A stretch of 43,208 nt of DNA from positions 1-43,208 of the forward strand of contig JAPLJH010000068.1 of NCBI GenBank assembly GCA_026388695.1, written 5' to 3'. The position numbers and the translations under genes are program-made. The notes under the pieces were generated by a model, which made no database searches, was not told the DNA's origin, and was given only the letters and a program-made list of their open reading frames with translations. The stretch's first letter is position 1, and every line of letters starts with the position of its first letter. The DNA is from Deltaproteobacteria bacterium (lineage in GTDB: Bacteria; Desulfobacterota; Desulfobulbia; Desulfobulbales; Desulfurivibrionaceae). Positions 4,898-24,475 of the stretch are shown one piece after another.

Positions 4898-7800
4898 TTA
4901 AGCGCAGGTCGCTTCGTCCTCCACCCTGACGGCAAAAGGCAACGGCTGCTGCGGGCTGTTGTCGTAGGCTGCGAGATCAAGCTGTGTCCCACAATCGAGC
5001 ATCTCCAGCAACACCTCTTTGGCCACCGGCTTGCTGAACAGAAATCCCTGCATCTCATCGCAGCCGTGGCGGCGAAGAAAATGCAACTGCTCCCCGGTTT
5101 CCACCCCCTCGGCCACCACCCGCATATTCAGGCTCTTGGCCATGGCGATGATGGCCGTGACAATGGCCACGTTATCGCCGTGCCCAACGATATCCCGAAC
5201 AAATCTCCGATCTATCTTCAATTCGCCGATGGGCAGTTGTTTTAGATAATAGAGGGAAGAATAACCGGTCCCGAAATCGTCAATAGAAATCTCCGCCCCC
5301 ATCCCCCTCAGTGCGCCGAGCAGGACAATGGCCTTCTGCTCGTTTTCCATAACCGACCCCTCGGTAATCTCAAAGATCAATCTCTCCGGCCCAATTCCGG
5401 CGGCAGCCAAAGTCGCCCTGATCTTGCCCAGCAAGTCCTCCTGCCGAAACTGGCGGGGGGAAAGATTCACCGACATCTTGATCCCATAGCCTTGCCCAAG
5501 GATTTCCCCGAGATCGGCACAGGCCTGCGCAAGCACCCAATCACCGATCTCCACAATAAGCCCGGTATCTTCGGCCATGGGAATAAAATCGGCCGGATTG
5601 ATTATCTCGCCATCCCCACGCCGCCAGCGGACAAGGGCCTCCACCCCCACAATCGTACCGGTGACCAGGTCCACCTTGGGCTGGTAGTGAAGAAAAAACT
5701 CCCCACGATCCAAGGCCTTGCGCAGACTGTTTTCCACGGCCAGCCATTCGGTGACCCGCTTGTTCATGGCCGGGGTGAAAACCCGATAGGTGTTCTTGCC
5801 GCTTTCCTTGGCGCGGTACATGGCGGTATCCGCATTCTTGATCAGGGTATCCTGATCCTGCCCGTCCTCCGGGTAAAAGGCGATGCCCAGACTGACGGTC
5901 AGATAGAAATCCTCTCCCTGGAGACTGACCACTGGAGCTAAGCCCTCGATAATTCTCTTCGCGGCCAACAGCACATCCTCCTCCTGCTCCACCCCCTCAA
6001 ACAAAACGATAAATTCATCGCCGCCATAACGGGCCACGCTGTCAATCTCCCGCAGACAATGAACAAGCCGAGCCGCAACCTCCTTGAGCAACAGATCGCC
6101 CACCGTGTGCCCCAGGCTATCGTTGATCCGCTTGAAGTTGTCCAGGTCGAGAAACAAAATCGCAACCTTGTTTTCATCCCGCCGGGCATGGGCCATGGCC
6201 ACGCCGAGCCGATCATGAAACAACACCCGATTGGGCAGGCCGGTCAGGGCGTCATGGTGGGCCTGATACCGCAACTGTTCTTCGTGCAGCTTGATTTCGG
6301 TCATATCATGGAACACGCCGACATAATTCACGGTATTTCCCTGCGCATCCCGGATGGAGGTGATGGTCAGCCACTCGGGATAGATCTCCCCGTCCTTGCG
6401 CCGGTTCCAGATCTCCCCCTGCCACTGCCCCTTTTCCACCAGGGCGCGCCACATCTCGGCAAAAAATTCGTCCTCATGCCGATCCGACTTGAGAATCCTG
6501 GGATTTTGCCCCATCACTTCCTCTTCCCCGTAGCCGGTGATGTCCGAGAATGCCGGGTTTATCCGCTGAATAACGCCCTCGGCGTCGGTGATCACAATGC
6601 CTTCGATGCTGTTTTCAAAGACATTATCCGACAACACCAGCTGCTGGGTGGTCTGCTTCGCTTCGGTGATGTCCTGTGTAATACCCGTGAGATGGACGGC
6701 TCGGCCATGCTCGTCCCGCTTGACCTCGGCCTCCGTGTGGATATAACGCTCCGCGCCATCCGGCCGAACTATGCGGAAATCCAGATTCCCGGCAGAATCT
6801 CCTGCCAGTAGCGCTTGCAGCCAGGCCTGCACCAGGGCCTGATCCTCCGGATGAACATAATGAAAAAACCCCTCATAGCTGTAAATTCTGCTTTCCTTGG
6901 CCACCCCGAAGATGCGATAGGTCTGTTCGGAACAGACAAGATTGTTCTTGTCGACATCCCAATCCCAGTACCCAAGCCTGGCGATCTTCTGGGCCTTGGT
7001 CAAGCTTCTCTCGCTACGCCGCAGGTTGTCTTCGATGCGCCCTCGCTCAAGAATTTCCTGATTGAGATCCTCATTGGTTTTGGCCAAATCCACCGTCCGC
7101 TCGACAATGATCTCCTCAAGATTATTCCGGTATTTCTCCAGTTCCGTGAAGTTCTTGCGAAGTTCGGCCTTGGAAGAAGACAGGGACCAGTTGGCTTCGC
7201 GTAATTCCCGGTGCATGACCGCAAAGGTGAAATGCAACACCAGAAAGGCGACAAGCCCAACGAAAAGGGTCAAGACGATGCTTATGCCGACAAAGGCTTT
7301 GAATTCCGCAACAAACTGAGTCACTTCAATGGCCAGGGCAACCCAGCCCGCAGGATCGCCCTTGAAATCCGGCAAAGCCAAGCTGGTGTCAAAGACATAC
7401 CAGCGCCCTTGAATCTGCAGCGGGACAAGCTTTTCGGTAGGAAAAAGAAATTTCTCCGGCAGGTGACGGAAAACATTATCGCAGCACGCCATCAGAACCT
7501 GATTACCCACTTCCTGCGCCGCAGCCGCATGATACCCCGCACGCTTCTCCTTGTGCCAGATAGCCTGGTCAAACAGCAGGGCCATCTGTCCGCCATGCTC
7601 CCCCCCCACGTGCTCCACAAGCTGTTCCGCCTTGAAGCCGAATTCAACGGCTCCGACATAGGCTTCCCCGACAAAAACAGGCTGGCTGATCCGGTAAAAA
7701 AAACCCGCAGGACCCAGCTCATAACCGGACAGCAATTTATGTCGGCGATTTACCTCTACAACTATGGGCCGCATGGAAAGATCGTCGCCATTTTGCTCGG

Positions 7801-8173
7801 GCTGATGCACCCGCAGGAAAGAGCGATTATCCGGGGTGTAAAAATGGAAATACACAAAAGCGGGGTTTTCTTTCTGCAAGGACTCATACAGGGGAAGACA
7901 CTGAGCCAGCAGTGCGGCCCGATCGCCTTTTGCAAAGGACGCAACCACCTGGGGCCGAGTGTTGACAAGGCTTTGCAGCCTAACGCTGTAACTGGCGAAG
8001 GTCTGGCTGGCGGTCAGGTCAAAAAGCGCATGCACATGGTGTTGCTCAACGACAAGCCTTTGTTCAAAATCATGATGGCGGGTTTTGATCCCCCAAAATA
8101 AAAACACTCCGGCCAGGCAGAGAATCGTCCCCAGCACGGTCAAGGTGGCTTTCCATTGTCTCAGAGAAGGCAT
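4898..8173 (-). CDS. Membrane sensor diguanylate cyclase/phosphodiesterase (PAS-PAS-GGDEF-EAL)
   Basis: This 1091-aa protein makes and/or breaks cyclic di-GMP. It has a membrane segment at about 10-28, a periplasmic double-CACHE-like sensor (about 35-285, with a FVYFHFYTPDNRSFLRVHQP block), a second membrane segment (about 294-318), and a coiled coil (about 330-390). Two PAS domains (about 395-505 and 515-630) and GGDEF (about 640-800) follow, then EAL (about 808-1070). The cyclase motif RYGGDEF is intact (GGDEF at 717-721). An inhibitory I-site RxxD (R708-D711) sits exactly five residues before it. The EAL domain keeps VGVEALVRW (E845), LSPRQF, FEITE, DDFGTGYSS, KIDR and AEGVET. Both activities are therefore plausible, with the sensor setting the balance. 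It lies 51 bp downstream of pgi on the same strand. The ligand is unknown. Confidence 0.9.
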   Translation of the reverse strand: MPSLRQWKATLTVLGTILCLAGVFLFWGIKTRHHDFEQRLVVEQHHVHALFDLTASQTFASYSVRLQSLVNTRPQVVASFAKGDRAALLAQCLPLYESLQKENPAFVYFHFYTPDNRSFLRVHQPEQNGDDLSMRPIVVEVNRRHKLLSGYELGPAGFFYRISQPVFVGEAYVGAVEFGFKAEQLVEHVGGEHGGQMALLFDQAIWHKEKRAGYHAAAAQEVGNQVLMACCDNVFRHLPEKFLFPTEKLVPLQIQGRWYVFDTSLALPDFKGDPAGWVALAIEVTQFVAEFKAFVGISIVLTLFVGLVAFLVLHFTFAVMHRELREANWSLSSSKAELRKNFTELEKYRNNLEEIIVERTVDLAKTNEDLNQEILERGRIEDNLRRSERSLTKAQKIARLGYWDWDVDKNNLVCSEQTYRIFGVAKESRIYSYEGFFHYVHPEDQALVQAWLQALLAGDSAGNLDFRIVRPDGAERYIHTEAEVKRDEHGRAVHLTGITQDITEAKQTTQQLVLSDNVFENSIEGIVITDAEGVIQRINPAFSDITGYGEEEVMGQNPRILKSDRHEDEFFAEMWRALVEKGQWQGEIWNRRKDGEIYPEWLTITSIRDAQGNTVNYVGVFHDMTEIKLHEEQLRYQAHHDALTGLPNRVLFHDRLGVAMAHARRDENKVAILFLDLDNFKRINDSLGHTVGDLLLKEVAARLVHCLREIDSVARYGGDEFIVLFEGVEQEEDVLLAAKRIIEGLAPVVSLQGEDFYLTVSLGIAFYPEDGQDQDTLIKNADTAMYRAKESGKNTYRVFTPAMNKRVTEWLAVENSLRKALDRGEFFLHYQPKVDLVTGTIVGVEALVRWRRGDGEIINPADFIPMAEDTGLIVEIGDWVLAQACADLGEILGQGYGIKMSVNLSPRQFRQEDLLGKIRATLAAAGIGPERLIFEITEGSVMENEQKAIVLLGALRGMGAEISIDDFGTGYSSLYYLKQLPIGELKIDRRFVRDIVGHGDNVAIVTAIIAMAKSLNMRVVAEGVETGEQLHFLRRHGCDEMQGFLFSKPVAKEVLLEMLDCGTQLDLAAYDNSPQQPLPFAVRVEDEATCA

Positions 8174-8224
8174 ATTATTGTTCTCTCAATAACAGATAGA
8201 CAAAGGCTCTTGTCATCGCAACCG

Positions 8225-9889
8225 TCACTTGCCAAGCATCCCGGCAGCGGCAAGTAGCGCCCAGCCAGAGCCGTCAGATGCTTCGCCGCTGTAGCCAGGG
8301 TCCTGACGGATCCCGGCATAATGAGCCAGCAGACGGGTTGCCAATTTTTTCCCCAGTTGCACGCCTTCCTGATCAAAGGAATTGATGTTCCAGATAAATC
8401 CCTGGAACACCACCTTGGCCTCATACAGGGCAAGCAAAGCGCCCATGGTGTAAGGCGTCAGCCGGTCGGCCAGGAGCACTGAACTGGGGCGGTTTCCGGC
8501 AAAACGCCGGTTGGGATTTTCGTGGGGCTGGCCGGTGGCCAGGGCAAGGGCCTGGGCCAGGAGGTTTGCCACCAGCTTTTCTTGGGAGGTGGTCTGCTCG
8601 ATGAGCATATCACGGCCACGCTGGCTGTTGCGAAAGCCGATGAATTCGGCGGGAACGATATCGGTTCCCTGGTGGATCAACTGATAAAAGGCGTGCTGGC
8701 CATTGGTGCCCGGCTCACCCCAGATGATGGGGCCACTTTTCCAGGCAAGGGGTTTGCCCTGCCTGGTCACGGATTTACCGTTGCTCTCCATGTCGCATTG
8801 CTGGAGATGGGCGGGAAAACGGACCAGGGCCTGGCTGTATGGCAGGATGGCCAGGGTTTCGCAGCCAAGGAAATTATGATTCCAGATGCCCAGCAGGGCC
8901 AGGAGCAAGGCAGGGTTGCGGCGGATATCCGGCTCTTCCGCAGCCAGGTCCATGGCATTGGCTCCCCGGAGAATCTCCAAGAGATACGGGTATCCCAGGC
9001 CAAAACCGAGCATCACCCCACCGACCATGGAGGTGGCGCTGTAACGCCCGCCGATGGAATCGTACATGTAAAAAGAGCGGAGATACCGGGCAGGATTATC
9101 CATGGGCGAGCCCTTACCGGTAACGGCCAGAAAATGCCGGCTTGGCTCAAGCCCGGCCTCGGCAAAGGCCTTGCGCACCAACTCCTCGTTGGTCATGGTT
9201 TCGAGGGTGGAGCCGCTTTTCGAAACCACATTGACCAGAGTTTTGGCAAGATCAAGCCCGCTCAGGATAGCGGCGGCGTCATCGGGGTCCACGTTGCTGA
9301 TGAAATGTACCCTTCGCCCCGGGATTTTATAGGCGACCAGGGCCAGATACACGGCCCGGGGGCCGAGGTCGGAGCCGCCGATGCCAATCTGGACCAGGTC
9401 GGTGAACGGCTCGCCTGCCGCATTGACAATGACCCCCGCTTCAAGGTCTGCCAGAAAACCGGCCAGCTTTTCCAGCTCGGTCTTGGCCTGGGCCGAGGCC
9501 TCAGGCGCCAGACTGGCTGGGGCAAAGATATCGCGGCAGGCGGTGTGCAGCACCTGCCGCTCCTCGCTGGCATGGCCCTCGATCCGGTTCAGCACCGCGC
9601 CCTTTTTCATCAGCAGGAACTGGGCCACGGCCCCGCTCTCCTCGGCAAGCTTTTGCAGGGCCGCAAGCACCGCCTCATCTACCCGCTGGGTGGAATACAA
9701 CAGATCAAACCCGGCGGCCTGGGTCCGGTAGCTACGGATTCTTGCCGGAGAAAGGGCGCCGGACGCTGTCAGGTCATAGGGCGTACGCGCAAGCTCCCCG
9801 AGTTCTGCCCATGCTGACATCATATTGAAATCACAAGAAAAACAAGAAGAGGCATCGCCTTGATCCCCGACTCCGGCTGGCTGTCCCAT
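8225..9889 (-). CDS. pgi: Glucose-6-phosphate isomerase
   Basis: Pgi (up to 554 aa) interconverts glucose-6-phosphate and fructose-6-phosphate. Family blocks include QIGIGGSDLGPRAVYLAL, FISNVDPDD, VVSKSGSTLETMTNEE (sugar-phosphate binding), GGRYSATSMVGGVMLGFGLG, GEPGTNGQHAFYQLIHQGT and NSFDQEGVQLGKKLA with the catalytic lysine region. Two starts compete. The ATG at 9889 has a GGGGA motif 7 bp upstream. Internal ATGs at 9823/9820 would drop a 22-residue Cys- and Gly-containing leader that looks unlike the family, but they lack a clear ribosome binding site. The outer start is listed. The gene probably forms an operon with the downstream c-di-GMP gene. Confidence 0.93.
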   Translation of the reverse strand: MGQPAGVGDQGDASSCFSCDFNMMSAWAELGELARTPYDLTASGALSPARIRSYRTQAAGFDLLYSTQRVDEAVLAALQKLAEESGAVAQFLLMKKGAVLNRIEGHASEERQVLHTACRDIFAPASLAPEASAQAKTELEKLAGFLADLEAGVIVNAAGEPFTDLVQIGIGGSDLGPRAVYLALVAYKIPGRRVHFISNVDPDDAAAILSGLDLAKTLVNVVSKSGSTLETMTNEELVRKAFAEAGLEPSRHFLAVTGKGSPMDNPARYLRSFYMYDSIGGRYSATSMVGGVMLGFGLGYPYLLEILRGANAMDLAAEEPDIRRNPALLLALLGIWNHNFLGCETLAILPYSQALVRFPAHLQQCDMESNGKSVTRQGKPLAWKSGPIIWGEPGTNGQHAFYQLIHQGTDIVPAEFIGFRNSQRGRDMLIEQTTSQEKLVANLLAQALALATGQPHENPNRRFAGNRPSSVLLADRLTPYTMGALLALYEAKVVFQGFIWNINSFDQEGVQLGKKLATRLLAHYAGIRQDPGYSGEASDGSGWALLAAAGMLGK

Positions 9890-10180
9890 AAGAAAATCCC
9901 CGTTCCCTTCATAATTTCATGGAGATAAGAAAAAAAATGTTAAAAAATAAGATGTTATCTGCTACATAATAAAGTTAATTACTTTTTACTAGATACACGT
10001 AACCCTCTTGCGAGTGTATCTTATCACAACCGGGCCATATCATTGCATAAGACTTACACGACAGCATATTTTTTTTCCTGCAGAGCAGCTGACGAAAAAT
10101 CACTCCTTTCGCCAGCCCGAGAGCGCACAATATTCACTTTTCCTTTTTCACACTAATCTCCAGGGAGCACGACCCACGCC
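9890..10180. other. Gene-free divergent region with inverted repeat 9991-10021
   Basis: This 290-bp AT-rich gap separates pgi (minus) from the J-domain gene (plus). AGATACAC at 9991-9998 is repeated inverted as GTGTATCT at 10014-10021, with 15 bp between the 8-bp arms: a candidate operator or leader hairpin. A weak promoter-like pair, TTGCAT about 17 bp before ATATTT, lies around 10043-10071. No open frame here looks like a protein. Confidence 0.4.
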
Positions 10181-11062
10181 ATGGAAACAGTTGCCGCTGA
10201 AAAGGAACTCTTCCGCTCCTGCGAGATCATTTTTGGACCGGAACTCACCATCTCCCGAGAATTTCTCGACTATCTCCAGCTCTCCGGCATCAAAAGCGCC
10301 TACCGCAAACGGGCCATGGAAACCCACCCGGACCGGGCCGCCTTGGAAAATGCCCGCGTGCAACGGCAGCACCACGAATTATTCCACTCGGTGCAGGAAG
10401 CCTACGAAAAACTGATCACCTTCCTTGACGCCAAGGAAAAAGGCTACTGCCTGCCCCTCCCGGCGCGGCCGCGAACCCAGCCCCCCCGCCCGGCTCCGCC
10501 CAAGCCCCACCGGACCCAGCAGGCAAGGCCGAACCAAGACCCAGCCAGACCCCGCCCGCAACCCAAGCCCGGCGGCACCCACACAACCGCCGATTTCAGG
10601 AGCACCGCAAGCCAGCCCTCTGTTTTCTGGGATACAGAAAGCCTCTACCAGGGGCAAGTGCCGAACCGCCGCCTGTTGCTTGGCCATTTCCTCTACTATT
10701 CCGGTCTGATCAACTGGCGAACCATCATCCAGGCCCTGATCTGGCAACGCACCGAACGCCCGCGCCTGGGAGAAATCGGCCAGCGTTTTGGCCTGCTCAA
10801 CGATGCGGATGTGGTGCAGATTCTCCGCAACCGCCCGAGCTTGCAACCCTTTGGCCAGACCGCCATGGATCTCGGCCTGCTGTCCCAACCCCAACTTCAG
10901 ATGCTCGTAGCCCATCAAAAACGGCTGCAGAAAAAATTCGGCGAATTCTTTCTGGAAAAACGGATACTCGAACCCAACGAATTGCGCGCCCTGCTCCAGC
11001 AATATCAAGAGCACAACGCCAGCATCTCCGGCCAGGCGTACGGATCAGCTTTCCAACGTTGA
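10181..11062 (+). CDS. J-domain protein with GspE-N/MshEN-like C-terminal repeats
   Basis: This 293-aa protein opens with a DnaJ-like domain (about 25-90): GIKSAYRKRAMETHPDRA carries the HPD signature at residues 49-51 that stimulates Hsp70 ATPase. A Pro/Arg-rich linker (about 95-140, many PPRP/QPRP-type runs) follows. The C-terminal part (about 155-285) has repeated helical units such as RPRLGEIGQRFGLLNDADVVQIL, FGQTAMDLGLLSQPQLQMLV and KKFGEFFLEKRILEPNELRALL. They resemble the LGxxLxxxGLIxxxxL repeats of type II secretion ATPase N-domains (MshEN/GspE-N), an identification by pattern only. It is probably a co-chaperone dedicated to an unknown assembly. It is followed after 57 bp by the M48 peptidase gene. 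Confidence 0.7.
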   Translation: METVAAEKELFRSCEIIFGPELTISREFLDYLQLSGIKSAYRKRAMETHPDRAALENARVQRQHHELFHSVQEAYEKLITFLDAKEKGYCLPLPARPRTQPPRPAPPKPHRTQQARPNQDPARPRPQPKPGGTHTTADFRSTASQPSVFWDTESLYQGQVPNRRLLLGHFLYYSGLINWRTIIQALIWQRTERPRLGEIGQRFGLLNDADVVQILRNRPSLQPFGQTAMDLGLLSQPQLQMLVAHQKRLQKKFGEFFLEKRILEPNELRALLQQYQEHNASISGQAYGSAFQR

Positions 11063-11119
11063 GACCATTGCCCCTGTCATTCCGACGCAATAGCGCCAGG
11101 CCCAGAACAACCGACCCCC

Positions 11120-12967
11120 ATGTACAATAATCTCCTCTATCTCCTGGTCGTCATCCTGATTCTTACCACCGGAGGCATTCCGGAACAGCCACAAATCCCA
11201 TGGTCTATGGCCCTGGTACTCTTTTGCGGCAAGATCGTTTTGTTCAATCAGCTGGCCCGTTATTTTTTCCGGCGCAATCCCGACAACACCGCGGCCCGCT
11301 ATTTTTCCGTGGAACAACGGCTTTCCATCCTGGCCATCATTTTTCTGGCCGTGGACATCTTTCTGCTGGAGGGCCGCTATTACCTGAGCCGCCTGCCCCT
11401 TGCCGACAAGCTTCCGGTTCTTGCCCCTCTGGCGGGGATTTTTCTTTTTTTCGGCTACCTCTGCCTCATCTGGCTGGCGGCCCGCCCCAGCTATCAAAGC
11501 ATCTTCGCCAGGACCCTTACAGCCCGTTCGTTTGTTGCCGCAAACATCAAGATCAATCTTGCCATCCTGCTGCCCTGGCTCATTATCTCCGTCTTTTTCG
11601 ACCTTCTCCAGCTTGTTCCCTTTCCCCGACTCAAAGACTTTCTCGCCTCACCCTGGGGCGAACCCATCCTGGTGCTGTTCTCGTTTTTTGGCCTGATCTT
11701 TTTTCTGCCCCTGGCCATTGTCCGCCTCTGGGGCTGCACCCCGCTCCCGCCAGGCCCGACCCGACAACGCCTTGAAGACTTCTGTCACAGCCAGCGCCTG
11801 CGGTTTGCCGACATCCTGCTCTGGCCGCTTTTTGAGGGCCGGATGCTCACCGCCGGAGTCATGGGCCTCAGCCGCCGCTTCCGCTACATTCTTGTTACCC
11901 CTGCCCTGCTCGAAGCCACGACCCCGGAAGAAATCGAAGCGGTCTTGGCCCATGAACTGGGACATGTCAAACGCTACCATCTCCAACTCTACCTCTTCAT
12001 CTTTCTCGGCTTTGGCCTGCTGACCCAGGTGAGCGGCGCTCCGCTGCTCCTGCTCCTGCTCAGCTCGGACCTTTTTTACCAGCTGATCACCCTGAGCGGA
12101 AAATCTCCGGACACCATCCTTGCCCTGGCCAGCGCCTCCATTCTTTTCGTCCTGATGTTGGGCTATTTTCGTTTTATCTTTGGTTTTTTCATGCGCAACT
12201 TTGAGCGGCAGGCGGACCTGTATGCCCTGAGCGCCATGGGGCACGCCTCCCCCCTGATCCGGGTTTTTGAAAAGATCGCCCTGCTCAGCGGCAATATCCG
12301 GGATCTGCCCAGCTGGCACCATTTTGGCCTGGGCCAGCGCATCGACTTCCTGCGCCGGTGCGAAGAAAAACCACACCGAATTCCCCGCCATCACCGCAAG
12401 GTCCACTTGGCCCTGGCCCTCTACACTCTTGTGATGCTCACCGGCGCCCTTGCTGCCTGGCGCCTTCCCCCAGACCTTCTCGGGGAAGCACCAAAAGCCA
12501 GATTCGCCGAAGCACTCATCCGGCAAAAGATTCGGGAACAACCGGACAACGGCCTCTGGTTCCAACTCCTGGGCGATCTGCACTACAGCCGCAACCAGGA
12601 AGAGGCCGCCCGTGATTCCTATGAGCAGGCATTACGCCTGGCCCCAGCCAACACGGAAGCCCTGAACAACCTGGCCTGGCTTTTGCTCACCGCTCAGGAA
12701 CCAGGGCTGCGCAACCCGAAAAAAGCCCTGACCCTCGCCCAGAAAGCGGCGGCGGAAACGAGAATCCCGCATGTGCTCGACACCCTGGCCACGGCGTACT
12801 GGGCAAACGATAACCGCAAAGAGGCTCTCGCCGTCGAAGAGAAAGCCCTTACCCAGGCAGGAACGCACCAGGACTTTTACCGCGGCCAGATGGAAAAATT
12901 CCGCACCACCCAATACTCGTCCGCCACCCGCTTCCCGGAAGCAGGGCAGAGCGCCGACACTCCTTGA
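11120..12967 (+). CDS. Membrane M48-family zinc metallopeptidase with C-terminal TPRs
   Basis: This 615-aa protein is an integral-membrane peptidase. Several hydrophobic segments occupy about residues 5-205. The zinc site HELGH is at 278-282 in EIEAVLAHELGHVKRYH, and the third-ligand glutamate is in FERQADLYAL (E362) after two more membrane segments (about 295-360). A further membrane helix lies near 430-450. Tetratricopeptide-like repeats follow (about 465-590, e.g. LWFQLLGDLHYSRNQEEAAR and ALNNLAWLLL). M48 peptidases such as HtpX act in membrane-protein quality control, and fusion to TPRs is seen in envelope proteases (BepA-like). The ATG at 11120 has no clear ribosome binding site. cobO starts 7 bp after its stop. 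Confidence 0.85.
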   Translation: MYNNLLYLLVVILILTTGGIPEQPQIPWSMALVLFCGKIVLFNQLARYFFRRNPDNTAARYFSVEQRLSILAIIFLAVDIFLLEGRYYLSRLPLADKLPVLAPLAGIFLFFGYLCLIWLAARPSYQSIFARTLTARSFVAANIKINLAILLPWLIISVFFDLLQLVPFPRLKDFLASPWGEPILVLFSFFGLIFFLPLAIVRLWGCTPLPPGPTRQRLEDFCHSQRLRFADILLWPLFEGRMLTAGVMGLSRRFRYILVTPALLEATTPEEIEAVLAHELGHVKRYHLQLYLFIFLGFGLLTQVSGAPLLLLLLSSDLFYQLITLSGKSPDTILALASASILFVLMLGYFRFIFGFFMRNFERQADLYALSAMGHASPLIRVFEKIALLSGNIRDLPSWHHFGLGQRIDFLRRCEEKPHRIPRHHRKVHLALALYTLVMLTGALAAWRLPPDLLGEAPKARFAEALIRQKIREQPDNGLWFQLLGDLHYSRNQEEAARDSYEQALRLAPANTEALNNLAWLLLTAQEPGLRNPKKALTLAQKAAAETRIPHVLDTLATAYWANDNRKEALAVEEKALTQAGTHQDFYRGQMEKFRTTQYSSATRFPEAGQSADTP

Positions 12968-12974
12968 GGAAATA

Positions 12975-13499
12975 ATGGCGACACAGGGCTTGGTTATCAT
13001 CAACACGGGGCACGGCAAGGGGAAAACCACGGCGGCGTTCGGGCAGGCGTTGCGGGCGGCAGGCCAGGGCATGAAGGTCTGCATCATTCAGTTCATCAAG
13101 GGGCAGGGCAAAACCGGCGAGGCATTGGCATTTGCTGCTGCCTTTCCCGAACAGGTTGAGCTGCATCTTGCCGGGACCGGCTTTACCTGGCAACAGGACA
13201 TGGAGACCGTGAAAGCAGCGGCCCTGGCTGGCTGGCAACTCGCCGGGGAAAAGATCTTAAGCGACGCCTACGACCTGATCGTGCTCGACGAGCTCACCTA
13301 CCTGATCGGCTTCGGCATTGTTTCGGAAGAGGAGATCCTCGACCTGTTTCGCCAGCGGCCCCAACGCTTGCATCTGGTGATCACCGGCCGCGACGCCAGC
13401 TCGGGGCTCATCGAATATGCGGATTTGGTCACCGAGATGCACGCCCTAAAACATCCCTACCAAAAAGGGATCAAGGCACAGAAGGGTATTGAGTTCTGA
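12975..13499 (+). CDS. cobO: Cob(I)yrinic acid a,c-diamide adenosyltransferase (CobA/CobO/BtuR type)
   Basis: This 174-aa ATP:corrinoid adenosyltransferase attaches the 5'-deoxyadenosyl group to cobalt in cobalamin synthesis or salvage. The P-loop is NTGHGKGKTTAAFG (about residues 10-23). CIIQFIKG, DLIVLDELTYLIGFG (Walker B-like) and LVITGRDA complete the family signature. Frames extending upstream to 12771 only overlap the peptidase gene. The ATG at 12975 has GAGGA 4 bp upstream and gives the expected N-terminus. It ends 12 bp before the convergent flavodoxin-like gene. Confidence 0.93.
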   Translation: MATQGLVIINTGHGKGKTTAAFGQALRAAGQGMKVCIIQFIKGQGKTGEALAFAAAFPEQVELHLAGTGFTWQQDMETVKAAALAGWQLAGEKILSDAYDLIVLDELTYLIGFGIVSEEEILDLFRQRPQRLHLVITGRDASSGLIEYADLVTEMHALKHPYQKGIKAQKGIEF

Positions 13500-13511
13500 G
13501 AAGCGGGCGGG

Positions 13512-14210
13512 TCATGCGCTGCCCTGCCCTGGCCCGGCGACAAACGAAAGATCTGCCAGAGAGCTCCCGCGCTTCAAGGCCTGGCCGATGGCCTGGCCAC
13601 AGGTGAAGGCCTGATCCTGCTGCTCCCGGCTATGTCCATAGCGCGGATAATGCCGACCAAGCCATCTACCCCGTTCCGGCACCCGACCGGCAAGCTTCAG
13701 AAATACCCCGATGGTCCGCCAGGGCTCCTTGCTGGGATGAGCAAAGATCATCCTGCCCACCACCATGGCTCCGCACCGCGCAAGCTGCCAGCGCAGGCTC
13801 AGCCAGTGCATCCGCCAATAGCCCCGGCAGGAAATCAGGGGAAGAACCTGCTGCCCGGCAAAAAGCCTTACCCCATCCCGATCAAGCAGGGAGAGAACCG
13901 GACCGCTGGGGTTATAAGACCAAGTTGGTCCAGCCAGCACAATGAGATCATAGTGTTCCCCGCAAATGGGCGACAGCGGCTGGATGGGCATCCGTGTGCG
14001 CAAAAAGGTGACAAACATCAGAAACAGGGTGGCAGGCACCGTGCCGATGGGAAAATGACGGGGCACCAGAGGCTGAAGCCGCTCGCAGGCCAGCTGCACC
14101 CCCTGCGCCTCAAGACCTGCGCCGAGCCGATGCACAAGGCCGCTGGTCTGGGCGCTGAGCGAGTAATAGAGGATGAGAACTTTCTTCGGTTGAGAATCTG
14201 CGGGCTGCAT
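13512..14210 (-). CDS. Flavodoxin-fold protein, function unknown
   Basis: This 232-aa protein has a flavodoxin-like start: strand VLILYYSLSAQTSGLVHRL supplies an FMN-phosphate loop, and YDLIVLAGPTWSYNPSGPV matches the second flavin loop. Beyond about residue 125 it carries Arg/Trp-rich sequence (RGYWRMHWLSLRWQLARCG) not found in simple flavodoxins, and a hydrophobic stretch near 60-70. It is divergent from the protoporphyrinogen oxidase gene. Because HemG-type protoporphyrinogen oxidases are also flavodoxin-fold proteins, a link to haem synthesis is conceivable, but this is inference from position only. It could equally be a general NAD(P)H/quinone-type flavoprotein. Confidence 0.6.
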   Translation of the reverse strand: MQPADSQPKKVLILYYSLSAQTSGLVHRLGAGLEAQGVQLACERLQPLVPRHFPIGTVPATLFLMFVTFLRTRMPIQPLSPICGEHYDLIVLAGPTWSYNPSGPVLSLLDRDGVRLFAGQQVLPLISCRGYWRMHWLSLRWQLARCGAMVVGRMIFAHPSKEPWRTIGVFLKLAGRVPERGRWLGRHYPRYGHSREQQDQAFTCGQAIGQALKRGSSLADLSFVAGPGQGSA

Positions 14211-18002: not shown

Positions 18003-18034
18003 GAAGAAACTTTTATCCCTAAGGAGACCCTGTC

Positions 18035-19105
18035 ATGGACCCCGCCCAACTTATCCCCTCGCCCGACACCATTCCGGCACCATGGGGCTTTTTCGAGCTT
18101 CTCCTTATCCTGACCTTTTTCACCCACCTTGTTTTCATGAACGCCATGCTGGGCAGCGCCATGATCGCCCTGATCAGGGAGATGCGGACCCCGGCCGCCG
18201 ACCCGCCGCCCTGCCTGGATATTGCCAGCAAATTGCCATACACCATCGCCTTTGCCGTGAACTTCGGGGTAGCGCCCCTTCTTTTTCTCCAGGTGCTCTA
18301 CGGACACTTCATCTATACCAGCTCCATCCTCATGGGGGCGTACTGGCTCTCCATCATCGGCCTGCTCATTCTCGCCTATTACAGCGCCTATCTCTATAAG
18401 ATGGCTGGGAATCTGCCCGCCACCACCCGAAAACGGGCCCTGACCACAAGCCTCCTGCTCCTGCTAGCAATCGCCTTTTTCTTTGTCAACAATATAACCC
18501 TGATGCAGAACCCGCAGATCTGGAGCGCCTATTTCCACCGCCCGGACGGCACCTTCTTGAACCTTGCCGACCCGACCCTCCTCCCCCGCTATCTGCATTT
18601 TGTCGTAGCCTCCGTGGCGGTCGGCGGCATTTTTCTGGCAATCCTCGCCTTTTTTCAACTAAAAAACGGTGCGCCTGGGGCTGCAAAACGCCTGAGCTTA
18701 GGGATGAAATGGTTCACCTACGCCACGGTGGTTGAAATCGGCACCGGCATCCCCTTTCTTTTTTCCCTGCCCAAAAACGTACACCAGATGTTTATCGGCA
18801 GCGCCCCCTTGCACACCGCTCTTTTCCTCGCCGCCCTGGTCGCGACTTGTTGCAGCATCTACTACGGCATAAAAGAACGGGTCTGGCCCACCACCGTCGC
18901 CCTGGCCGCAACCATCCTCTTCATGGTGCTGGTGCGGGATTTGGCCAGACAGGCCTATCTGGCCAAATACTTCCATCCCTCCGACCTACAGGTCGTGCCG
19001 CAGTGGTCACCGATGTTTCTCTTCCTGGCAATCCTGGTGATCGGAGTTGCGATTATCATATATATGCTCAAACTCGCGGCCCGGGTCCCTGAGGAGGTAC
19101 GCTGA
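18035..19105 (+). CDS. CydA-like integral membrane protein (no cytochrome c domain)
   Basis: This 356-aa, roughly eight-helix membrane protein resembles cytochrome bd oxidase subunit I. By hand alignment to E. coli CydA, FFTHLVFMNAMLG (H31) matches the region of His19, NNITLMQNPQIW (152-163) matches ANGWMQNP, and RYLHFVVASVAVGG (H188) matches KFVHTVASGYVTG carrying His186, the haem b558 ligand. The region equivalent to the Glu99/Glu107 segment (about 100-115) has no acidic residue. It is translated from an ATG with AAGGAG 9 bp upstream and its stop overlaps the next start (TGATG). It is probably one half of a heteromeric haem-b quinol or cytochrome oxidoreductase with the next protein. No CydB gene is present. 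Family assignment comes from pattern, not a search. Confidence 0.6.
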   Translation: MDPAQLIPSPDTIPAPWGFFELLLILTFFTHLVFMNAMLGSAMIALIREMRTPAADPPPCLDIASKLPYTIAFAVNFGVAPLLFLQVLYGHFIYTSSILMGAYWLSIIGLLILAYYSAYLYKMAGNLPATTRKRALTTSLLLLLAIAFFFVNNITLMQNPQIWSAYFHRPDGTFLNLADPTLLPRYLHFVVASVAVGGIFLAILAFFQLKNGAPGAAKRLSLGMKWFTYATVVEIGTGIPFLFSLPKNVHQMFIGSAPLHTALFLAALVATCCSIYYGIKERVWPTTVALAATILFMVLVRDLARQAYLAKYFHPSDLQVVPQWSPMFLFLAILVIGVAIIIYMLKLAARVPEEVR

Positions 19106-21756
19106 TGAATTATCCCGTCTGGCAGTTGGATTTTTCCGGCGGCGGCCTGCTCATCGCCCTTATCGCCGTCCTGCATGTGTACATTTCCCATTTTGCCATT
19201 GGCGGCGGGCTCTTTCTTGTCCTCACCGAGATGAAGGGTTACCGGGAAGGCTCACAGGCCATCTTGGACTACACCCGAAAGCACACCAGGTTCTTCCTGC
19301 TCCTCACCTTGGTGCTGGGCGCCATGACCGGGGTGGGCATCTGGTTCACCATCGCTCTCATCGCCCCGGCCGCCACCTCCATCCTTATTCACAATTTTGT
19401 CTTCGCCTGGGCCATCGAATGGGTCTTTTTTCTCGCGGAGATCGTGTCCATCCTCATCTACTATCAAACCTTCGGCCGCATGGAGCGGCGCAGCCACCTT
19501 ATCATCGGCTGGCTCTATTTCATCTTTGCCTGGCTCTCCCTTTTTGCCATCAACGGGATACTCGGCTTCATGCTCACCCCTGGCGAGTGGCTTCGAACTC
19601 ACAACTTCTGGGACGGCATCTTCAACCCCACCTTCTGGCCAGCCCTTTTCTTCCGCACCTTCCTATGCCTGATGCTGGCTGGGCTGTATGGCTTCCTGAC
19701 CTCCACTCGGATCAAGGAAGAAGCCTTTCGCCTGCGCATGGTCCGCTACTGCGCCACCTGGCTCCTGGCCCCCTTCCTGCTGTTCCTGACTTCGGCCTGG
19801 TGGTATATCCAGGCTCTGCCCGAGCCGCAAAGGGCCTGGATTGCAAACTTCAGCCCGGCGCTGGCCCCATTTCTCACCGTCTTTTTCTGGGCCTCGCCGC
19901 TTCTTTTCCTCGGCGGCCTTATCATGGTGATCCGCCTACCGCAGACAGCCACGCGCACGCTGGCCGTGGTTCTTCTCCTTCTGGGCATCACCTACATGGG
20001 TTCTTTTGAATACATCCGGGAAGGCAGCCGTCGGCCCTTTACCCTGTACGGTCACATCTACGCCAATTCCGTCCTGGCAAAAGATCTCGATACGGTCCAA
20101 GCCCAGGGCATCCTGGCCTCGGCCAAATGGGTCAGCAAGGAGATCACCGAGAAAAAACGGCTGGTGGTTGGCCGACAGCTCTTCAATATAATGTGCTCCC
20201 CCTGCCATTCCGTGGGCGGCCCCATGCGGGATATCAAAAAGATGAGCGCCAAATACGAATCGGTCTATGCCATGGAGGCCGAGATAAACGGCCAGGGCAA
20301 GCTGATCCGCTGCATGCCGCCCTTCCCCGGCAACGGCCAGGAACGCCATGCCCTGGCTTCCTTTATTGTTGAGGGGCTGCGCGGCAGAAAAGAAGCGACA
20401 GCTGCTGCTCCGGCGCTCAACGCCCCGCCGCTTGCCCCCCTGCCCTTTGACCCGGCGCAGAGCGGCTACGTCCTCCTTGCCTGGAACAATCTTGGCATGC
20501 ACAGCATAAGCGATGCGGACGGCTCGTTCAGCCTCATGCCCCCGGCAAACGATCTCTTCGCCCAGCTCATCAAACGCGGACCAACCCCGGAGATCATCAC
20601 CGAGGGCGTGGAGCTTGTTTTCCAGGTTGAGCCTGGCTTTGAAAAACCAGCCAGGCAAGTAGATTTCTGGAAGCAGGTTCCTGCTCTGTTCGGCAGAATC
20701 CTGCCTGAAAATGTCGGCCTTTCCGGTCAGGGCCTTTCCGGCCCCATGCAGCTCCAGGGAAATGGCAAAGCCTTTGTTGCAAAAAACGTCCCGGTGGTGC
20801 CCTATCCCGCCCAGGGGGGCTATCAACCCTACCCGAGCTTTACCATCGAGGCCAGGGACAAGGCCACCAATACCATTCTTGCCACCACCCGCATGGTTGC
20901 CCCGGTTGCAACCGAGATGGGCTGCAAGACCTGCCATGGCGGCACCTGGCGCAAGGGCCAAGCGGGAATCTCAGACACCACGGCACAAGACATCCTGCAC
21001 ATGCATGACCGCTTCAACAAGACCAGCCTGGCGGCCCAAGCCAAAGCGGGCAAGCCTGTCCTCTGCCAGAGCTGCCACCCGGACCCAATGCTGAACGCCC
21101 CCGGCAAACCAGGACTACTCAACCTTTCCGCCTCCATCCACGGCTTCCATGCCAACTTCCTAGGTGGCCGAGGCGCCGAGGCCTGCGCCCTTTGCCACCC
21201 CAGCAACCCGCAGGGCGCCACCCGTTTCCTCCGCGGCGTCCACCACGAGGCTGGGCTTGACTGCACCAACTGCCACGGCGCCTTGGAAGACCACGCCCTA
21301 GCCCTGCTTTTGGCCGAAAAAAATGCCGGGAAACCCGGGGCGGCCCGGCTGATGCAGCACCTCAAACCACGCCTGGCGGCAGGCCTTGCCGGGATACAGC
21401 CCCGCACCCCCTGGGTACAGCAACCGGATTGTCTTACCTGCCATGTAAATTTTGCTCCGCCCGAGGTCGACAGCGCCTTTAACACTTGGACCACCGGGGC
21501 CGACGCCCTATACCGCAACCGGCACGATGATTCGGGCAGCATCCATTGCGCTGCCTGCCACAACAGCCCCCATGCCGAGTATCCTGCCAACAACCCCTAC
21601 GAAAAGGAGCGGGACAACTTCGGGCCCCGACAGTATCAGGGCAATCCCTACCCGCTGGGCGCCAACCGCAACTGCAAGGTCTGCCATACCATTGATATGA
21701 AGACCGACCTACACCACCCCAACTCCCTGGGCATGATGCGCAACACCCGGGAGTAA
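19105..21756 (+). CDS. CydA-like membrane domain fused to cytochrome c and multihaem c domain (8 CxxCH)
   Basis: In this 883-aa fusion, residues 1-320 form about eight membrane helices resembling CydA. LHVYISHFAIGGGLF (H24/H29) sits in the His19 region, AIEWVFFLAE gives E105 and E112 in the Glu99/Glu107 region, and EGSRRPF (306-312) resembles the EYGRQPW motif. The His186 equivalent is replaced by Arg (FFRTFLCLM, R184). Residues about 350-430 are a class I cytochrome c with CSPCH (364-368) and a likely Met ligand in CMPPFPG (404). Seven further CxxCH motifs lie at 607-611, 654-658, 694-698, 720-724, 776-780, 815-819 and 857-861. The C-terminus must be periplasmic for haem attachment. GAGGAGG precedes the start, which overlaps the upstream stop. 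Similar c-haem members of the bd superfamily are known, but substrate and direction here are unclear. Confidence 0.7.
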   Translation: MNYPVWQLDFSGGGLLIALIAVLHVYISHFAIGGGLFLVLTEMKGYREGSQAILDYTRKHTRFFLLLTLVLGAMTGVGIWFTIALIAPAATSILIHNFVFAWAIEWVFFLAEIVSILIYYQTFGRMERRSHLIIGWLYFIFAWLSLFAINGILGFMLTPGEWLRTHNFWDGIFNPTFWPALFFRTFLCLMLAGLYGFLTSTRIKEEAFRLRMVRYCATWLLAPFLLFLTSAWWYIQALPEPQRAWIANFSPALAPFLTVFFWASPLLFLGGLIMVIRLPQTATRTLAVVLLLLGITYMGSFEYIREGSRRPFTLYGHIYANSVLAKDLDTVQAQGILASAKWVSKEITEKKRLVVGRQLFNIMCSPCHSVGGPMRDIKKMSAKYESVYAMEAEINGQGKLIRCMPPFPGNGQERHALASFIVEGLRGRKEATAAAPALNAPPLAPLPFDPAQSGYVLLAWNNLGMHSISDADGSFSLMPPANDLFAQLIKRGPTPEIITEGVELVFQVEPGFEKPARQVDFWKQVPALFGRILPENVGLSGQGLSGPMQLQGNGKAFVAKNVPVVPYPAQGGYQPYPSFTIEARDKATNTILATTRMVAPVATEMGCKTCHGGTWRKGQAGISDTTAQDILHMHDRFNKTSLAAQAKAGKPVLCQSCHPDPMLNAPGKPGLLNLSASIHGFHANFLGGRGAEACALCHPSNPQGATRFLRGVHHEAGLDCTNCHGALEDHALALLLAEKNAGKPGAARLMQHLKPRLAAGLAGIQPRTPWVQQPDCLTCHVNFAPPEVDSAFNTWTTGADALYRNRHDDSGSIHCAACHNSPHAEYPANNPYEKERDNFGPRQYQGNPYPLGANRNCKVCHTIDMKTDLHHPNSLGMMRNTRE

Positions 21757-22043: not shown

Positions 22044-22295
22044 ATGCCAACAGTTCCACTCCGCAAAATGCAGAAAGACCAGTCAGGCACCATTACCGCG
22101 GTCAAGGTAGGCGGTGAGCTTGGCCGACGCATCCGGGACATGGGCATTGTCCCCGGCACCCGCATCACCATCATGGGTCGGGCTCCCCTCTTCGATCCGG
22201 TGGCAATCAGGATCATGGGCGGCACCCTGACCCTGCGCAACAGCGAAGCAGATTATATCGAAGTGGAAATCGCCAGCCCCGAGGAGAAGCTGTAA
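22044..22295 (+). CDS. feoA: Ferrous iron transport protein A (SH3-like)
   Basis: FeoA (83 aa) is the small cytosolic SH3-fold partner of FeoB. The core is typical: SGTITAVKVGGELGRRIRDM, GIVPGTRITIMGRAPLFDPV and IRIMGGTLTLRNSEADYIEV. The ATG at 22044 (MPTVPL) has GGAG about 8 bp upstream; the frame could start earlier at 21996, but that would fall on the promoter. The stop overlaps the feoB start (TAATG), so the pair is translationally coupled. Confidence 0.92.
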   Translation: MPTVPLRKMQKDQSGTITAVKVGGELGRRIRDMGIVPGTRITIMGRAPLFDPVAIRIMGGTLTLRNSEADYIEVEIASPEEKL

Positions 22296-24475
22296 TGTCA
22301 CCCCTTACCATCGCCCTGGCCGGCAACCCCAACGCGGGCAAGACCACCCTGTTCAACACCCTAACCGGCGCCCGTCAGCATGTGGGCAACTACCCCGGCG
22401 TCACGGTGGAGAAAAAGGCAGGGGCCTACACCTTTGCCACCGGCGAGGAAGCCACGATCATCGACCTGCCCGGCACCTACTCCCTTACCGCCTATTCGGT
22501 GGAAGAGGTGGTGGCCCGCGACTATCTGGTGCAGGAAAAACCCGACGTGGTCATCAATATCACCGACGCCTCCAACCTGGAACGTAATCTCTATCTTTCC
22601 ACCCAGTTTCTTGAGCTTGGCGTGCCCATGGTCATTGCCCTCAACATGATCGATGTGGCCCAGGATCGCGGGATCAGCCTTGACGCCCAAAGGCTCTCCG
22701 GCCTGCTCAAGGTGCCGGTTATCCCCATCATCGCCCGCTCCGGCAAAGGCACCCCCGAGCTGATGGCCGCAGCCCTGGATCTGGCCCAGAAAAATGCCCC
22801 CTGGGATCCCCTGTATATCTCCTACGGAGAAGACGTTGACCTCGCCTTGCAGGCCATGGCGCAACGGATCAACACCGCCGGATTCATGACAAACAGCTAT
22901 GCCCCGCGCTGGCTGGCGCTCAAATATCTGGAGGGCGACAGCCAGATCCGAGAAAAAGGCCGCAGAGCCGACCCGGTGGTTGACGGGGAACTTCAGGAGA
23001 TCGTGACCAAGGTCGGCGAGCATTTGCTCAAGACCATGGAAACCTATCCCGAGGCTATCATTGCCGACCACCGCTACGGCTATATCAAATCCGTGCTCCG
23101 CCAGGAGGTGATCACCCATAAATTCGACATCGACCGGCTCCATGCCTCCGACCGGATCGACAAGGTCCTGACCAACCGATTTATGGGACCGCTCATCATG
23201 CTGGCCGTGCTGCTGGGGCTCTACAAATTCACCTTCACCTACAGCCAGTTGCCCGTCGCCTGGTTTGCGGTATTTTTCGACTGGCTGAGCGGCAACCTTA
23301 GCACCCTGCTGCCGGACGGCCACCTGAAATCCATGCTCATCTCCGGGGTCATCCACGGGATGGGCGGGGTGCTTGGCTTTGTGCCACTGATCATGTTCAT
23401 GTTTTTCGGCATCGCCATCCTGGAAGACTCCGGCTACCTAGCCAGAGTCGCCTTCATGATGGACCGGGTCTTCCGCATCTTCGGGCTGCACGGCAGTTCG
23501 GTCATGGCCTACATCGTTTCCGGCGGCATTGCCGGAGGCTGTGCCGTGCCCGGCGTTATGGCCGCACGCACGCTGCGCTCCCCCCGCGAACGGCTGGCCA
23601 CCCTGCTCACCGTCTCCTTCATGAACTGCGGGGCCAAGCTGCCGGTACTCGCCCTGCTCACCGCCACCTTCTTTTCCCGCAGCCAGGCCCAGCTCATGTT
23701 CCTCCTGACACTGCTGGCCTGGGGTGTGGCGCTCACCGCCGCCAAAATCCTGCGGCTCACCGTATTGCGCGGCGAATCCACCCCCTTTGTCATGGAGCTG
23801 CCGCCCTACCGCTTCCCCACCTTCCAGGGTCTGCTCATCCATACCTGGGAAAGAACCTGGCAGTACATCAAAAAAGCGGGCACCACCATCCTGGCCATCT
23901 CCATCCTGATCTGGGCCATGATGACCTTTCCCGGTCTGCCGCACTCGGAAGAAGAGAACTTCGCCCGACAACGCCAGGAGGTGACTGCCTCTTTCACCCA
24001 GACAACAGAGGCCCTGCACCTCAAGGAAAAGCTGGCCGCCATCGATACCGCCCAGGCAGGCAGCGCCCTGCGCCACTCGATTGCCGGAAAAATCGGCACA
24101 ACCATGGAAACAGTGAGCTGGCTGCCCGGCTTTGACTGGCGGACCAACATCGCCCTGGTCGGTGGTTTTGCAGCCAAGGAGGTCATCGTCACCACCCTGG
24201 GCACGGCCTATTCTCTGGGCGATACCGACCCAAAAAACAACGCCTCCCTTTCCGAAACCCTGGCCAAGGATCCGCACTGGAACCCGGTAGTGGCCCTGGC
24301 CCTCATCGTCTTTGTCATGTTTTACGCACCCTGCTTTGTCACGGTGGTGTGCATCTCCAAGGAGTCCGGCTCTTGGAAATGGGGGCTTTTCTCCATCTGT
24401 TTCAACACCGCCTTCGCCTTTTCGCTGGCCACCCTGGTTTATCAGGGCGGCCAGCTACTGGGACTTGCCGGATAA
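22295..24475 (+). CDS. feoB: Ferrous iron transporter B
   Basis: FeoB (726 aa) is the inner-membrane Fe(II) permease with an N-terminal GTPase. G1 is GNPNAGKTTLFN (10-21), the switch I region has GNYPGVTVEKK, G3 is DLPGTYSL (57-64) and G4 is NMID (about 116). The membrane part has the two Gate segments, including SGGIAGGCAVPGVMAAR and SFMNCGAKLPVLALL with conserved cysteines, and ends with GFAAKEVIVTTLG and FYAPCFVTVVCI. Length is slightly below E. coli FeoB (773 aa). It lies between feoA and the small Cys-rich gene. Confidence 0.95.
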   Translation: MSPLTIALAGNPNAGKTTLFNTLTGARQHVGNYPGVTVEKKAGAYTFATGEEATIIDLPGTYSLTAYSVEEVVARDYLVQEKPDVVINITDASNLERNLYLSTQFLELGVPMVIALNMIDVAQDRGISLDAQRLSGLLKVPVIPIIARSGKGTPELMAAALDLAQKNAPWDPLYISYGEDVDLALQAMAQRINTAGFMTNSYAPRWLALKYLEGDSQIREKGRRADPVVDGELQEIVTKVGEHLLKTMETYPEAIIADHRYGYIKSVLRQEVITHKFDIDRLHASDRIDKVLTNRFMGPLIMLAVLLGLYKFTFTYSQLPVAWFAVFFDWLSGNLSTLLPDGHLKSMLISGVIHGMGGVLGFVPLIMFMFFGIAILEDSGYLARVAFMMDRVFRIFGLHGSSVMAYIVSGGIAGGCAVPGVMAARTLRSPRERLATLLTVSFMNCGAKLPVLALLTATFFSRSQAQLMFLLTLLAWGVALTAAKILRLTVLRGESTPFVMELPPYRFPTFQGLLIHTWERTWQYIKKAGTTILAISILIWAMMTFPGLPHSEEENFARQRQEVTASFTQTTEALHLKEKLAAIDTAQAGSALRHSIAGKIGTTMETVSWLPGFDWRTNIALVGGFAAKEVIVTTLGTAYSLGDTDPKNNASLSETLAKDPHWNPVVALALIVFVMFYAPCFVTVVCISKESGSWKWGLFSICFNTAFAFSLATLVYQGGQLLGLAG

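What the first reader, a model, noticed from the sequence alone, without database searches (positions are those of the whole stretch)
18035..21756. CydA-like protein pair with haem-ligand positions split between subunits and an octahaem c fusion
Both proteins resemble cytochrome bd subunit I and no CydB is present. By hand alignment, the 356-aa protein keeps the His186-like residue (H188) and LMQNP but lacks the Glu99/Glu107 acids. The 883-aa protein keeps both acids (E105, E112) and an EGSRRPF motif but has Arg (R184) at the His186 place. The two may complement each other as a heterodimer. The larger one adds one class I cytochrome c and seven further CxxCH motifs, which could feed or take electrons in the periplasm. 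Cytochrome-c-containing branches of the bd superfamily are known, but this split and multihaem fusion deserve a direct look.
Basis: partly seen in the sequence, partly recalled or inferred. Interest (0 to 1): 0.8.

Follow-up and report, generated by a model that had tools for sequence, protein, structure and literature searches.

The report
Paired bd-type oxidase with octahaem tail
Two overlapping genes in an uncultured sulfur-cycling bacterium encode what looks like an oxygen-consuming membrane enzyme built from two sister proteins, one carrying a built-in chain of eight haems that would feed it electrons from outside the inner membrane.

Summary
Both proteins are cytochrome bd subunit I-like; the 883-aa one adds a class I cytochrome c and seven more CxxCH motifs. 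Profile alignment confirms H24, E105 and E112 in the 883-aa protein and H188 in the 356-aa one. The H186 place in the 883-aa protein holds F183; the invariant R184 is one residue further. The genes are a strict pair: in a 198-genome phylum sample, 36 of 36 genomes with a clear large subunit also have the small one, even when unlinked. Within its family the eight-haem fusion looks ancestral (quick tree). In some genomes the pair, or the small gene alone, ends a cluster with flavodiiron protein and often cydAB or trihaem c genes. Best reading: a heterodimeric, cytochrome-c-fed bd-superfamily O2 reductase whose catalytic subunit carries its own haem wire. 'Complementing one haem site' is not supported. 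Two-CydA oxidases (CydAA', OR-N/OR-C) are known, so this is a new variant of a known kind. Activity, electron direction and haem content are untested.

The parts
18021..18026 (+). Shine-Dalgarno-like AAGGAG before the first gene
   Evidence: sequence printed; assignment by eye
18035..19105 (+). 356-aa CydA-like subunit (here called A'), nine long helices in the model, no CxxCH
18125..18127 (+). A' H31, aligned with CydA H19; 62 of 62 and 24 of 24
18596..18598 (+). A' H188, aligned with CydA H186; 62 of 62 and 24 of 24
18923..18949 (+). A' M297..R301-D302..R305 near the end of helix 8; M297 and R301 invariant; register against CydA E445/R448 uncertain (hhalign pairs D302/R305 with B E302/R305, by eye it could be E306/R309)
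19103..19107 (+). TGATG: stop of A' overlaps start of B by one base
19105..21756 (+). 883-aa fusion (here called B): CydA-like membrane domain + class I cytochrome c + heptahaem domain
19174..19176 (+). B H24, aligned with CydA H19
19417..19440 (+). B E105 and E112, aligned with CydA E99 and E107
19651..19656 (+). B F183 (at the CydA H186 place) and the invariant R184 beside it
20008..20037 (+). B E302..R305-E306-GS-R309-RP motif, likely equivalent of CydA E445/R448
   Evidence: (2.8 bits)
20152..20379 (+). class I cytochrome c domain; C364, C367, H368, M404 invariant
   Evidence: in the wider set C364, H368 and M404 were checked
20452..21756 (+). periplasmic heptahaem domain (CxxCH at residues 607, 654, 694, 720, 776, 815, 857), with an almost invariant extra His available for each haem

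Best explanation
The pair is a heterodimeric oxygen reductase of the cytochrome bd superfamily. Both subunits have the CydA fold. The 883-aa subunit (B) holds the dihaem O2-reducing site (H24, E105, E112, E306, R309) but has lost the quinol side (no long Q-loop, no His at the b558 place). Electrons would come from periplasmic low-potential cytochromes (for example the trihaem c7-type protein in related clusters), pass along the heptahaem domain to the class I c haem and then to the dihaem site. The 356-aa subunit (A') replaces CydB and probably carries its own b-type haem(s) through H31, H188 and M297. The job would be removal of O2 (possibly NO) at oxic-anoxic interfaces by an anaerobe. Shown: homology, conserved residues, fusion, strict pairing, gene context. 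Inferred: topology from model and charges, complex formation, haem content, O2 activity, direction of electron flow.
For: Pfam, HMMER, hhalign and Foldseek placement. Dihaem-site-type residues 54/54 and 24/24. H186 place is F183 (F in 53 of 54; F, L, M, V, Y, T or A in the wider 24, never H), while 20 of 20 canonical CydA keep H186, M393 and Q-loop K252. About 16 residues between helices 6 and 7 instead of a Q-loop. Pairing 36 of 36 in a 198-genome phylum sample; the one A' without B lies at a contig start. A' upstream of B on the same strand in 71 of 80 loci; two of the nine misses are contig edges, the other seven are the basal-most rows of the tree, and 5 of 5 of those searched whole have A' elsewhere. 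O2-defence context: FMN reductase, flavodiiron protein and HEAT protein before A'B in 6 of 80 loci, with trihaem c in five and cydA and/or cydB in four of the six; a like cluster before a lone A' in Desulfonema magnum and in G214. Extra His for a bis-His wire: H634, H679, H682, H713, H823 in 54/54, H730 in 51, H870 and H871 in 53. The free heptahaem gene of L140 starts with a signal-like sequence (by eye).
Against: No biochemical data. In 74 of 80 loci no flavodiiron gene was recognised within the fetched flank. The window's own locus has no O2-defence neighbour that I recognised; it lies between dnaA and feoB (by eye). Of four unlinked A' loci fetched, L172 has only the FMN reductase and L173 none (its contig ends about 230 bases upstream of A'). 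Direct hhalign of B residues 1-440 with the canonical CydA set is weak (probability 9%, E 0.003) and does not align E306 with E445; of A' with CydA weaker still (E 0.04). The A' haem assignment rests on conservation only. No donor identified.
Confidence: 0.63

Rival explanations
1. Reverse direction: a menaquinol dehydrogenase that takes electrons from the membrane at A' and exports them through b haems and the octahaem wire to periplasmic or extracellular acceptors, working like CbcL/ImcH/CbcBA of Geobacter (recalled).
For: Multihaem fusions to membrane cytochromes are typical of such conduits (recalled). A' has conserved polar residues in its helices (N76, Q86, Y94, Y115, Y119 each 62 of 62). 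Hosts are mostly anaerobic lineages (titles).
Against: CydA-type acids and an E..R motif are invariant in B. In the wider set N76, Y94, Y115 and Y119 vary, Q86 is kept in 23 of 24. No Q-loop, no His at the b558 place in B. Where a recognisable context recurs it is O2 defence; 8 of 80 loci have another ORF with two or more CxxCH besides the heptahaem gene of L140, six of these being the trihaem c.
Confidence: 0.18
2. Composite site: one haem held jointly by H188 of the 356-aa protein and the acids of the 883-aa protein.
For: H186-type His only in one protein, E99/E107-type acids only in the other.
Against: B alone keeps H19-, E99-, E107-type residues and the E445/R448-like motif; A' keeps its own H19-type His; both are whole CydA-like folds, and in E. 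coli bd the haems lie in CydA (PMC13189123, passage). Not tested by a complex model.
Confidence: 0.05
3. Nitric oxide rather than O2 is the main physiological substrate (NO detoxification).
For: Flavodiiron proteins beside the pair in some genomes can reduce NO or O2 (recalled); bd-type oxidases bind NO (recalled).
Against: cydA/cydB in the same clusters and rubrerythrin within the flank of 5 of 80 loci fit O2 at least as well. No denitrification gene was looked for.
Confidence: 0.1

Closest known systems
OR-N / OR-C type CydAA' oxidases of the bd superfamily (Nitrospira, Nitrospinota; Murali, Gennis and Hemp 2021, cited in PMC10839748 and PMC12342949)
   Same: Two CydA paralogues and no CydB; OR-N predicted to take electrons from cytochrome c, not quinol (passages)
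   Different: Here the catalytic subunit has a class I c plus a heptahaem domain fused to it. Whether it falls in OR-C or OR-N could not be tested (profiles and paper not held)
CydA homologue (CydAh) of cable bacteria (PMC13047784; also PMC10030654, PMC12093952)
   Same: CydA-like protein with a periplasmic cytochrome c domain, proposed among other candidates for O2 reduction; only CydA homologues found instead of a complete bd oxidase (passages)
   Different: Only a 'cytochrome c domain' is mentioned in the passages seen; a heptahaem tail and an A' partner are not. No cable-bacterium sequence was compared here
Canonical cytochrome bd quinol oxidase CydAB (qOR)
   Same: CydA fold; H19, E99, E107 equivalents and an E445/R448-like motif in B
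   Different: No Q-loop, no His at the b558 place in B, CydA-like A' instead of CydB, fused c haems
Multihaem quinol:cytochrome modules CbcL/ImcH/CbcBA of Geobacter (recalled)
   Same: Membrane cytochrome joined to multihaem c
   Different: Different membrane module as recalled; the membrane part of B matches only PF01654 in Pfam

Membership tests
Cytochrome bd superfamily (CydA fold) | Sequence match of the catalytic subunit to the CydA profile (PF01654) | tested here: met
   883-aa protein E 1.5e-9, above cut-off
Cytochrome bd superfamily (CydA fold) | Sequence match of the 356-aa protein to the CydA profile (PF01654) | tested here: not met
   No match for the protein or for any of 62 homologues at E<=0.1; one relative, G020, at 19 bits, below cut-off
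Cytochrome bd superfamily (CydA fold) | CydA-like fold | tested here: met
   883-aa model: all 9 PDB hits at E<=1e-3 are CydA-type chains (7oy2_C by its length); 356-aa model: both hits at E<=1e-3, and ranks 1-19, are bd subunits A or B
Cytochrome bd superfamily (CydA fold) | Dihaem-site residues H19, E99, E107 in the catalytic subunit | tested here: met
   883-aa family, 54/54 and 24/24. In the 356-aa family only the H19-type His; acids absent
Cytochrome bd superfamily (CydA fold) | Dihaem-site residues E445, R448 in the catalytic subunit | tested here: inconclusive
   E306/R309 invariant and in a like motif, but aligned only by a 2.8-bit HMMER stretch; hhalign leaves that part out of register
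Canonical qOR quinol oxidase (CydAB) | Q-loop and haem b558 ligands H186/M393 in the catalytic subunit | tested here: not met
   F183 at the H186 place, no His in 54 or in 24; helices 6 (206-237) and 7 (254-277) joined by about 16 residues. The M393 place was not located. Control: 20 of 20 canonical CydA keep H186, M393, K252
Canonical qOR quinol oxidase (CydAB) | CydB partner | tested here: not met
   A' aligns better to the B family (E 2e-8) and CydA (E 0.04) than to CydB (E 0.39); 21 CydB have no His conserved in 20 or more, A' has two invariant
CydAA' / OR-N / OR-C oxidases | Two CydA paralogues, no CydB in the unit | tested here: met
CydAA' / OR-N / OR-C oxidases | Position in the OR-C or OR-N clade of the published tree | not testable with these tools
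   Murali et al. 2021 not held; no reference sequences or profiles at hand
CydAA' / OR-N / OR-C oxidases | O2 reductase activity | not testable with these tools
   needs biochemistry

The most novel reading that the evidence does not exclude
A distinct branch of the bd superfamily in which O2 chemistry and a second conserved haem site are divided between two strictly paired CydA paralogues, and electrons enter from the periplasm through a built-in octahaem wire. This would be an outward-fed terminal oxidase tying the periplasmic (perhaps extracellular) cytochrome pool of sulfate-reducing and sulfur-oxidising anaerobes straight to O2, and would bear on how cable-bacteria relatives reduce O2 without a complete oxidase.
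Probability: 0.4. Interest if true: 0.72.

Novelty: new variant of a known kind. Interest (0 to 1): 0.55.

Why it matters
How anaerobes of the sulfur cycle remove or use O2 is an open, practical question; for several cable bacteria no complete known oxidase was found (PMC10030654 passages), though others have Cox or CydAB and a truncated haemoglobin is another candidate. An oxidase fed from the periplasm by its own haem wire would let cells discharge periplasmic electrons to O2 without going through quinol, and offers a concrete enzyme to express and assay. The fixed division of haem-type residues between two paralogues (A': H31, H188, M297; B: H24, E105, E112, E306) makes the role of the second subunit in CydAA'-type enzymes testable by mutation.

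Tried and rejected
Single-sequence Pfam, NCBIfam and PDB sequence searches do not recognise the 356-aa protein, nor does its family profile find a bd chain in the PDB (six weak sulfotransferase matches only); homology came from profile-profile alignment, A'-profile hits on B proteins and fold search. CydB as the identity of the 356-aa protein: rejected. Chance or misassembled fusion: rejected; in the B cluster of 79 ORFs from 78 of 80 loci, 66 have exactly 8 CxxCH. One-haem forms look derived: the h8/h1 label needs 3 changes against 7.8 in shuffles, and 4 when cut-off and two-haem rows are included (quick tree with 26 poorly supported forks of 82, rooted on two distant paralogues that themselves have one haem). 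Heptahaem domain against PDB sequences: no match at E<=0.01. My label 'NnrU' for the 206-aa downstream protein was dropped: no Pfam family. Haem distances could not be measured (no coordinates), no heterodimer was folded, and the second structural aligner was not available. COX1 was not found in the window's genome, which is 87% complete. Rows set aside in counts: paralogue or partial matches in G001, G032, G041, G057 (tally 36 of 58 becomes 32), paralogue in G001 and a 42-aa contig-edge match in G039 (34 becomes 32), four matches at E about 1e-4 in G175, G191, G197, G226 (40 becomes 36). The wider residue set of 24 pairs includes L049, which is also in alignments A1 and A2, and four paralogue loci; L058 (G032) was put in but fell below the threshold; of the 27 phylum-sample genomes with the two lower-scoring layouts, 13 were fetched, by choice.
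Full report
What is there. Two genes, 18035-19105 (356 aa, A') and 19105-21756 (883 aa, B), overlap by one base. B is a CydA-like membrane domain (PF01654, E 1.5e-9), a class I cytochrome c (C364-C367-H368, M404) and a heptahaem domain; 8 CxxCH in all. A' has no significant Pfam match, and none of 62 homologues matches a bd family at E<=0.1, yet its family profile aligns with the B family at hhalign probability 95%, E 2e-8, against E 0.04 for CydA and 0.39 for CydB; the A' profile also picks up three B proteins. AlphaFold2 models (pLDDT 86.9 and 84.6) match bd oxidase subunits in the PDB: for B all nine hits at E<=1e-3 are CydA-type chains, for A' both are bd subunits.

Residues. E. coli CydA numbering and haem roles are recalled; as a control, H19, E99, E107, H186, M393, E445, R448 are kept in 20 of 20 canonical CydA (19 from fetched loci plus E. 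coli), and 21 CydB have no His kept in 20 or more. E306/R309 resemble E445/R448 but are aligned only by a 2.8-bit stretch. H24, E105, E112, R184, E306 and R309 are each 54 of 54 among eight-haem relatives and 24 of 24 in a wider set. In A', H31 (H19), H188 (H186), M297 and R301 are 62 of 62 and 24 of 24; position 302 is D or E in 60 of 62 but in 14 of 24 of the wider set, and R305 is Q in 7 of 24.

Topology. The eight long helices of the B model, with the positively charged loops on one side, put its C-terminus in the periplasm; A' has nine (charges counted by script, sides by inference). In Desulfuromonas sp. BM522 (L140) the heptahaem part is a separate gene next to a 446-aa B and begins with a signal-like stretch (by eye). 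Each of the seven haems can be given an extra, almost invariant His, as in electron-transfer wires.

Family and pairing. In 58 relatives both genes occur in the same 32 genomes (counted in 86 after the rows named in Tried and rejected were set aside). In 198 genomes of the phylum B occurs in 36 (four weak matches set aside) and A' in 37, shared 36; the odd one has A' at a contig start. Of 80 fetched relatives (best 80 of 556 confirmed among 589 candidates, a capped list) 71 have A' upstream on the same strand, 69 of them within 600 bases; of the nine others two are contig edges and seven are the basal-most rows of the tree. Five of those seven were searched whole and all five have A' elsewhere, for example Desulfonema magnum with B near 762 kb and A' near 5.77 Mb. 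G214, a single-contig genome, is also unlinked. Three layouts were seen: A'-B with eight haems (some with one), B(one haem)-A', and B-A' with two CxxCH on A'. The eight-haem state covers 67 of 85 tree rows and the basal branches; the split form sits beside a fused one (quick tree).

Context. In 6 of 80 loci A'B follows FMN reductase, flavodiiron protein and HEAT protein genes on the same strand, with trihaem c in five of the six and cydA and/or cydB in four (one member of each family checked by Pfam). In Desulfonema magnum (trihaem c, FMN reductase, flavodiiron, HEAT) and G214 (cydA, cydB, FMN reductase, flavodiiron, HEAT) the lone A' closes such a cluster; in L172 only the FMN reductase was recognised and L173 ends too soon to tell. 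Rubrerythrin lies within the flank of 5 of 80. The window's own locus (between dnaA and feoB, by eye) lacks these neighbours; its genome has cydAB on another contig and no COX1 was found.

Reading. A periplasm-fed, heterodimeric bd-superfamily O2 reductase is best supported; the main rival is a quinol dehydrogenase running outward. Two-CydA, cytochrome-c-type bd enzymes are in print as OR-N CydAA' (passages of PMC10839748, PMC12342949), OR-C is named beside it (passage of PMC13189123), and a cable-bacterial CydA homologue with a periplasmic cytochrome c domain is in print (passage of PMC13047784). I saw no paper on the eight-haem fusion or the A' partner in the listings of searches or in the passages read; the founding paper by Murali and others could not be read, so it may already show such fusions. 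After checking, the confidence in the best reading was lowered slightly (0.65 to 0.63) because E306/R309 rests on weaker alignment than first written.

Noticed in passing
L055, L056, L057 (same genus or family), L054; L157-L159 in the wider set: A paralogous pair in reversed order: B-like protein (about 455 aa, one CxxCH) followed by an A'-like protein carrying two CxxCH of its own.
   Followed up: partly
L171 (Desulfonema magnum) 7147-13997; L174 7179-14545; L079, L128: Recurring cluster of cydA-cydB, trihaem c, FMN reductase, flavodiiron protein, HEAT protein and A'(-B), not every member in every locus; a small 115-aa ORF lies between the flavodiiron and HEAT genes in L171 and L174. Looks like an O2-defence island.
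   Followed up: partly
L080 11190-11810 and 12 other loci: A 206-aa membrane-like protein directly or soon downstream of B in 13 of 80 loci; the member scanned has no Pfam match.
   Followed up: no
L049 2589-4118: B with a second class I-like CxxCH domain instead of the heptahaem domain, and A' downstream of B.
   Followed up: no
L075 8809-10398: A separate 529-aa open frame with eight CxxCH about 5 kb downstream of the pair.
   Followed up: no
window 22295-24475: feoB-like ferrous iron transporter gene downstream of the pair in the window; like ORFs lie downstream in 7 of 80 relatives' loci (named by sequence appearance).
   Followed up: no
883-aa protein R184 (window 19654-19656): An Arg kept in all 54 and all 24 sequences checked, beside the place where CydA has the b558 ligand; its role is unknown.
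   Followed up: partly
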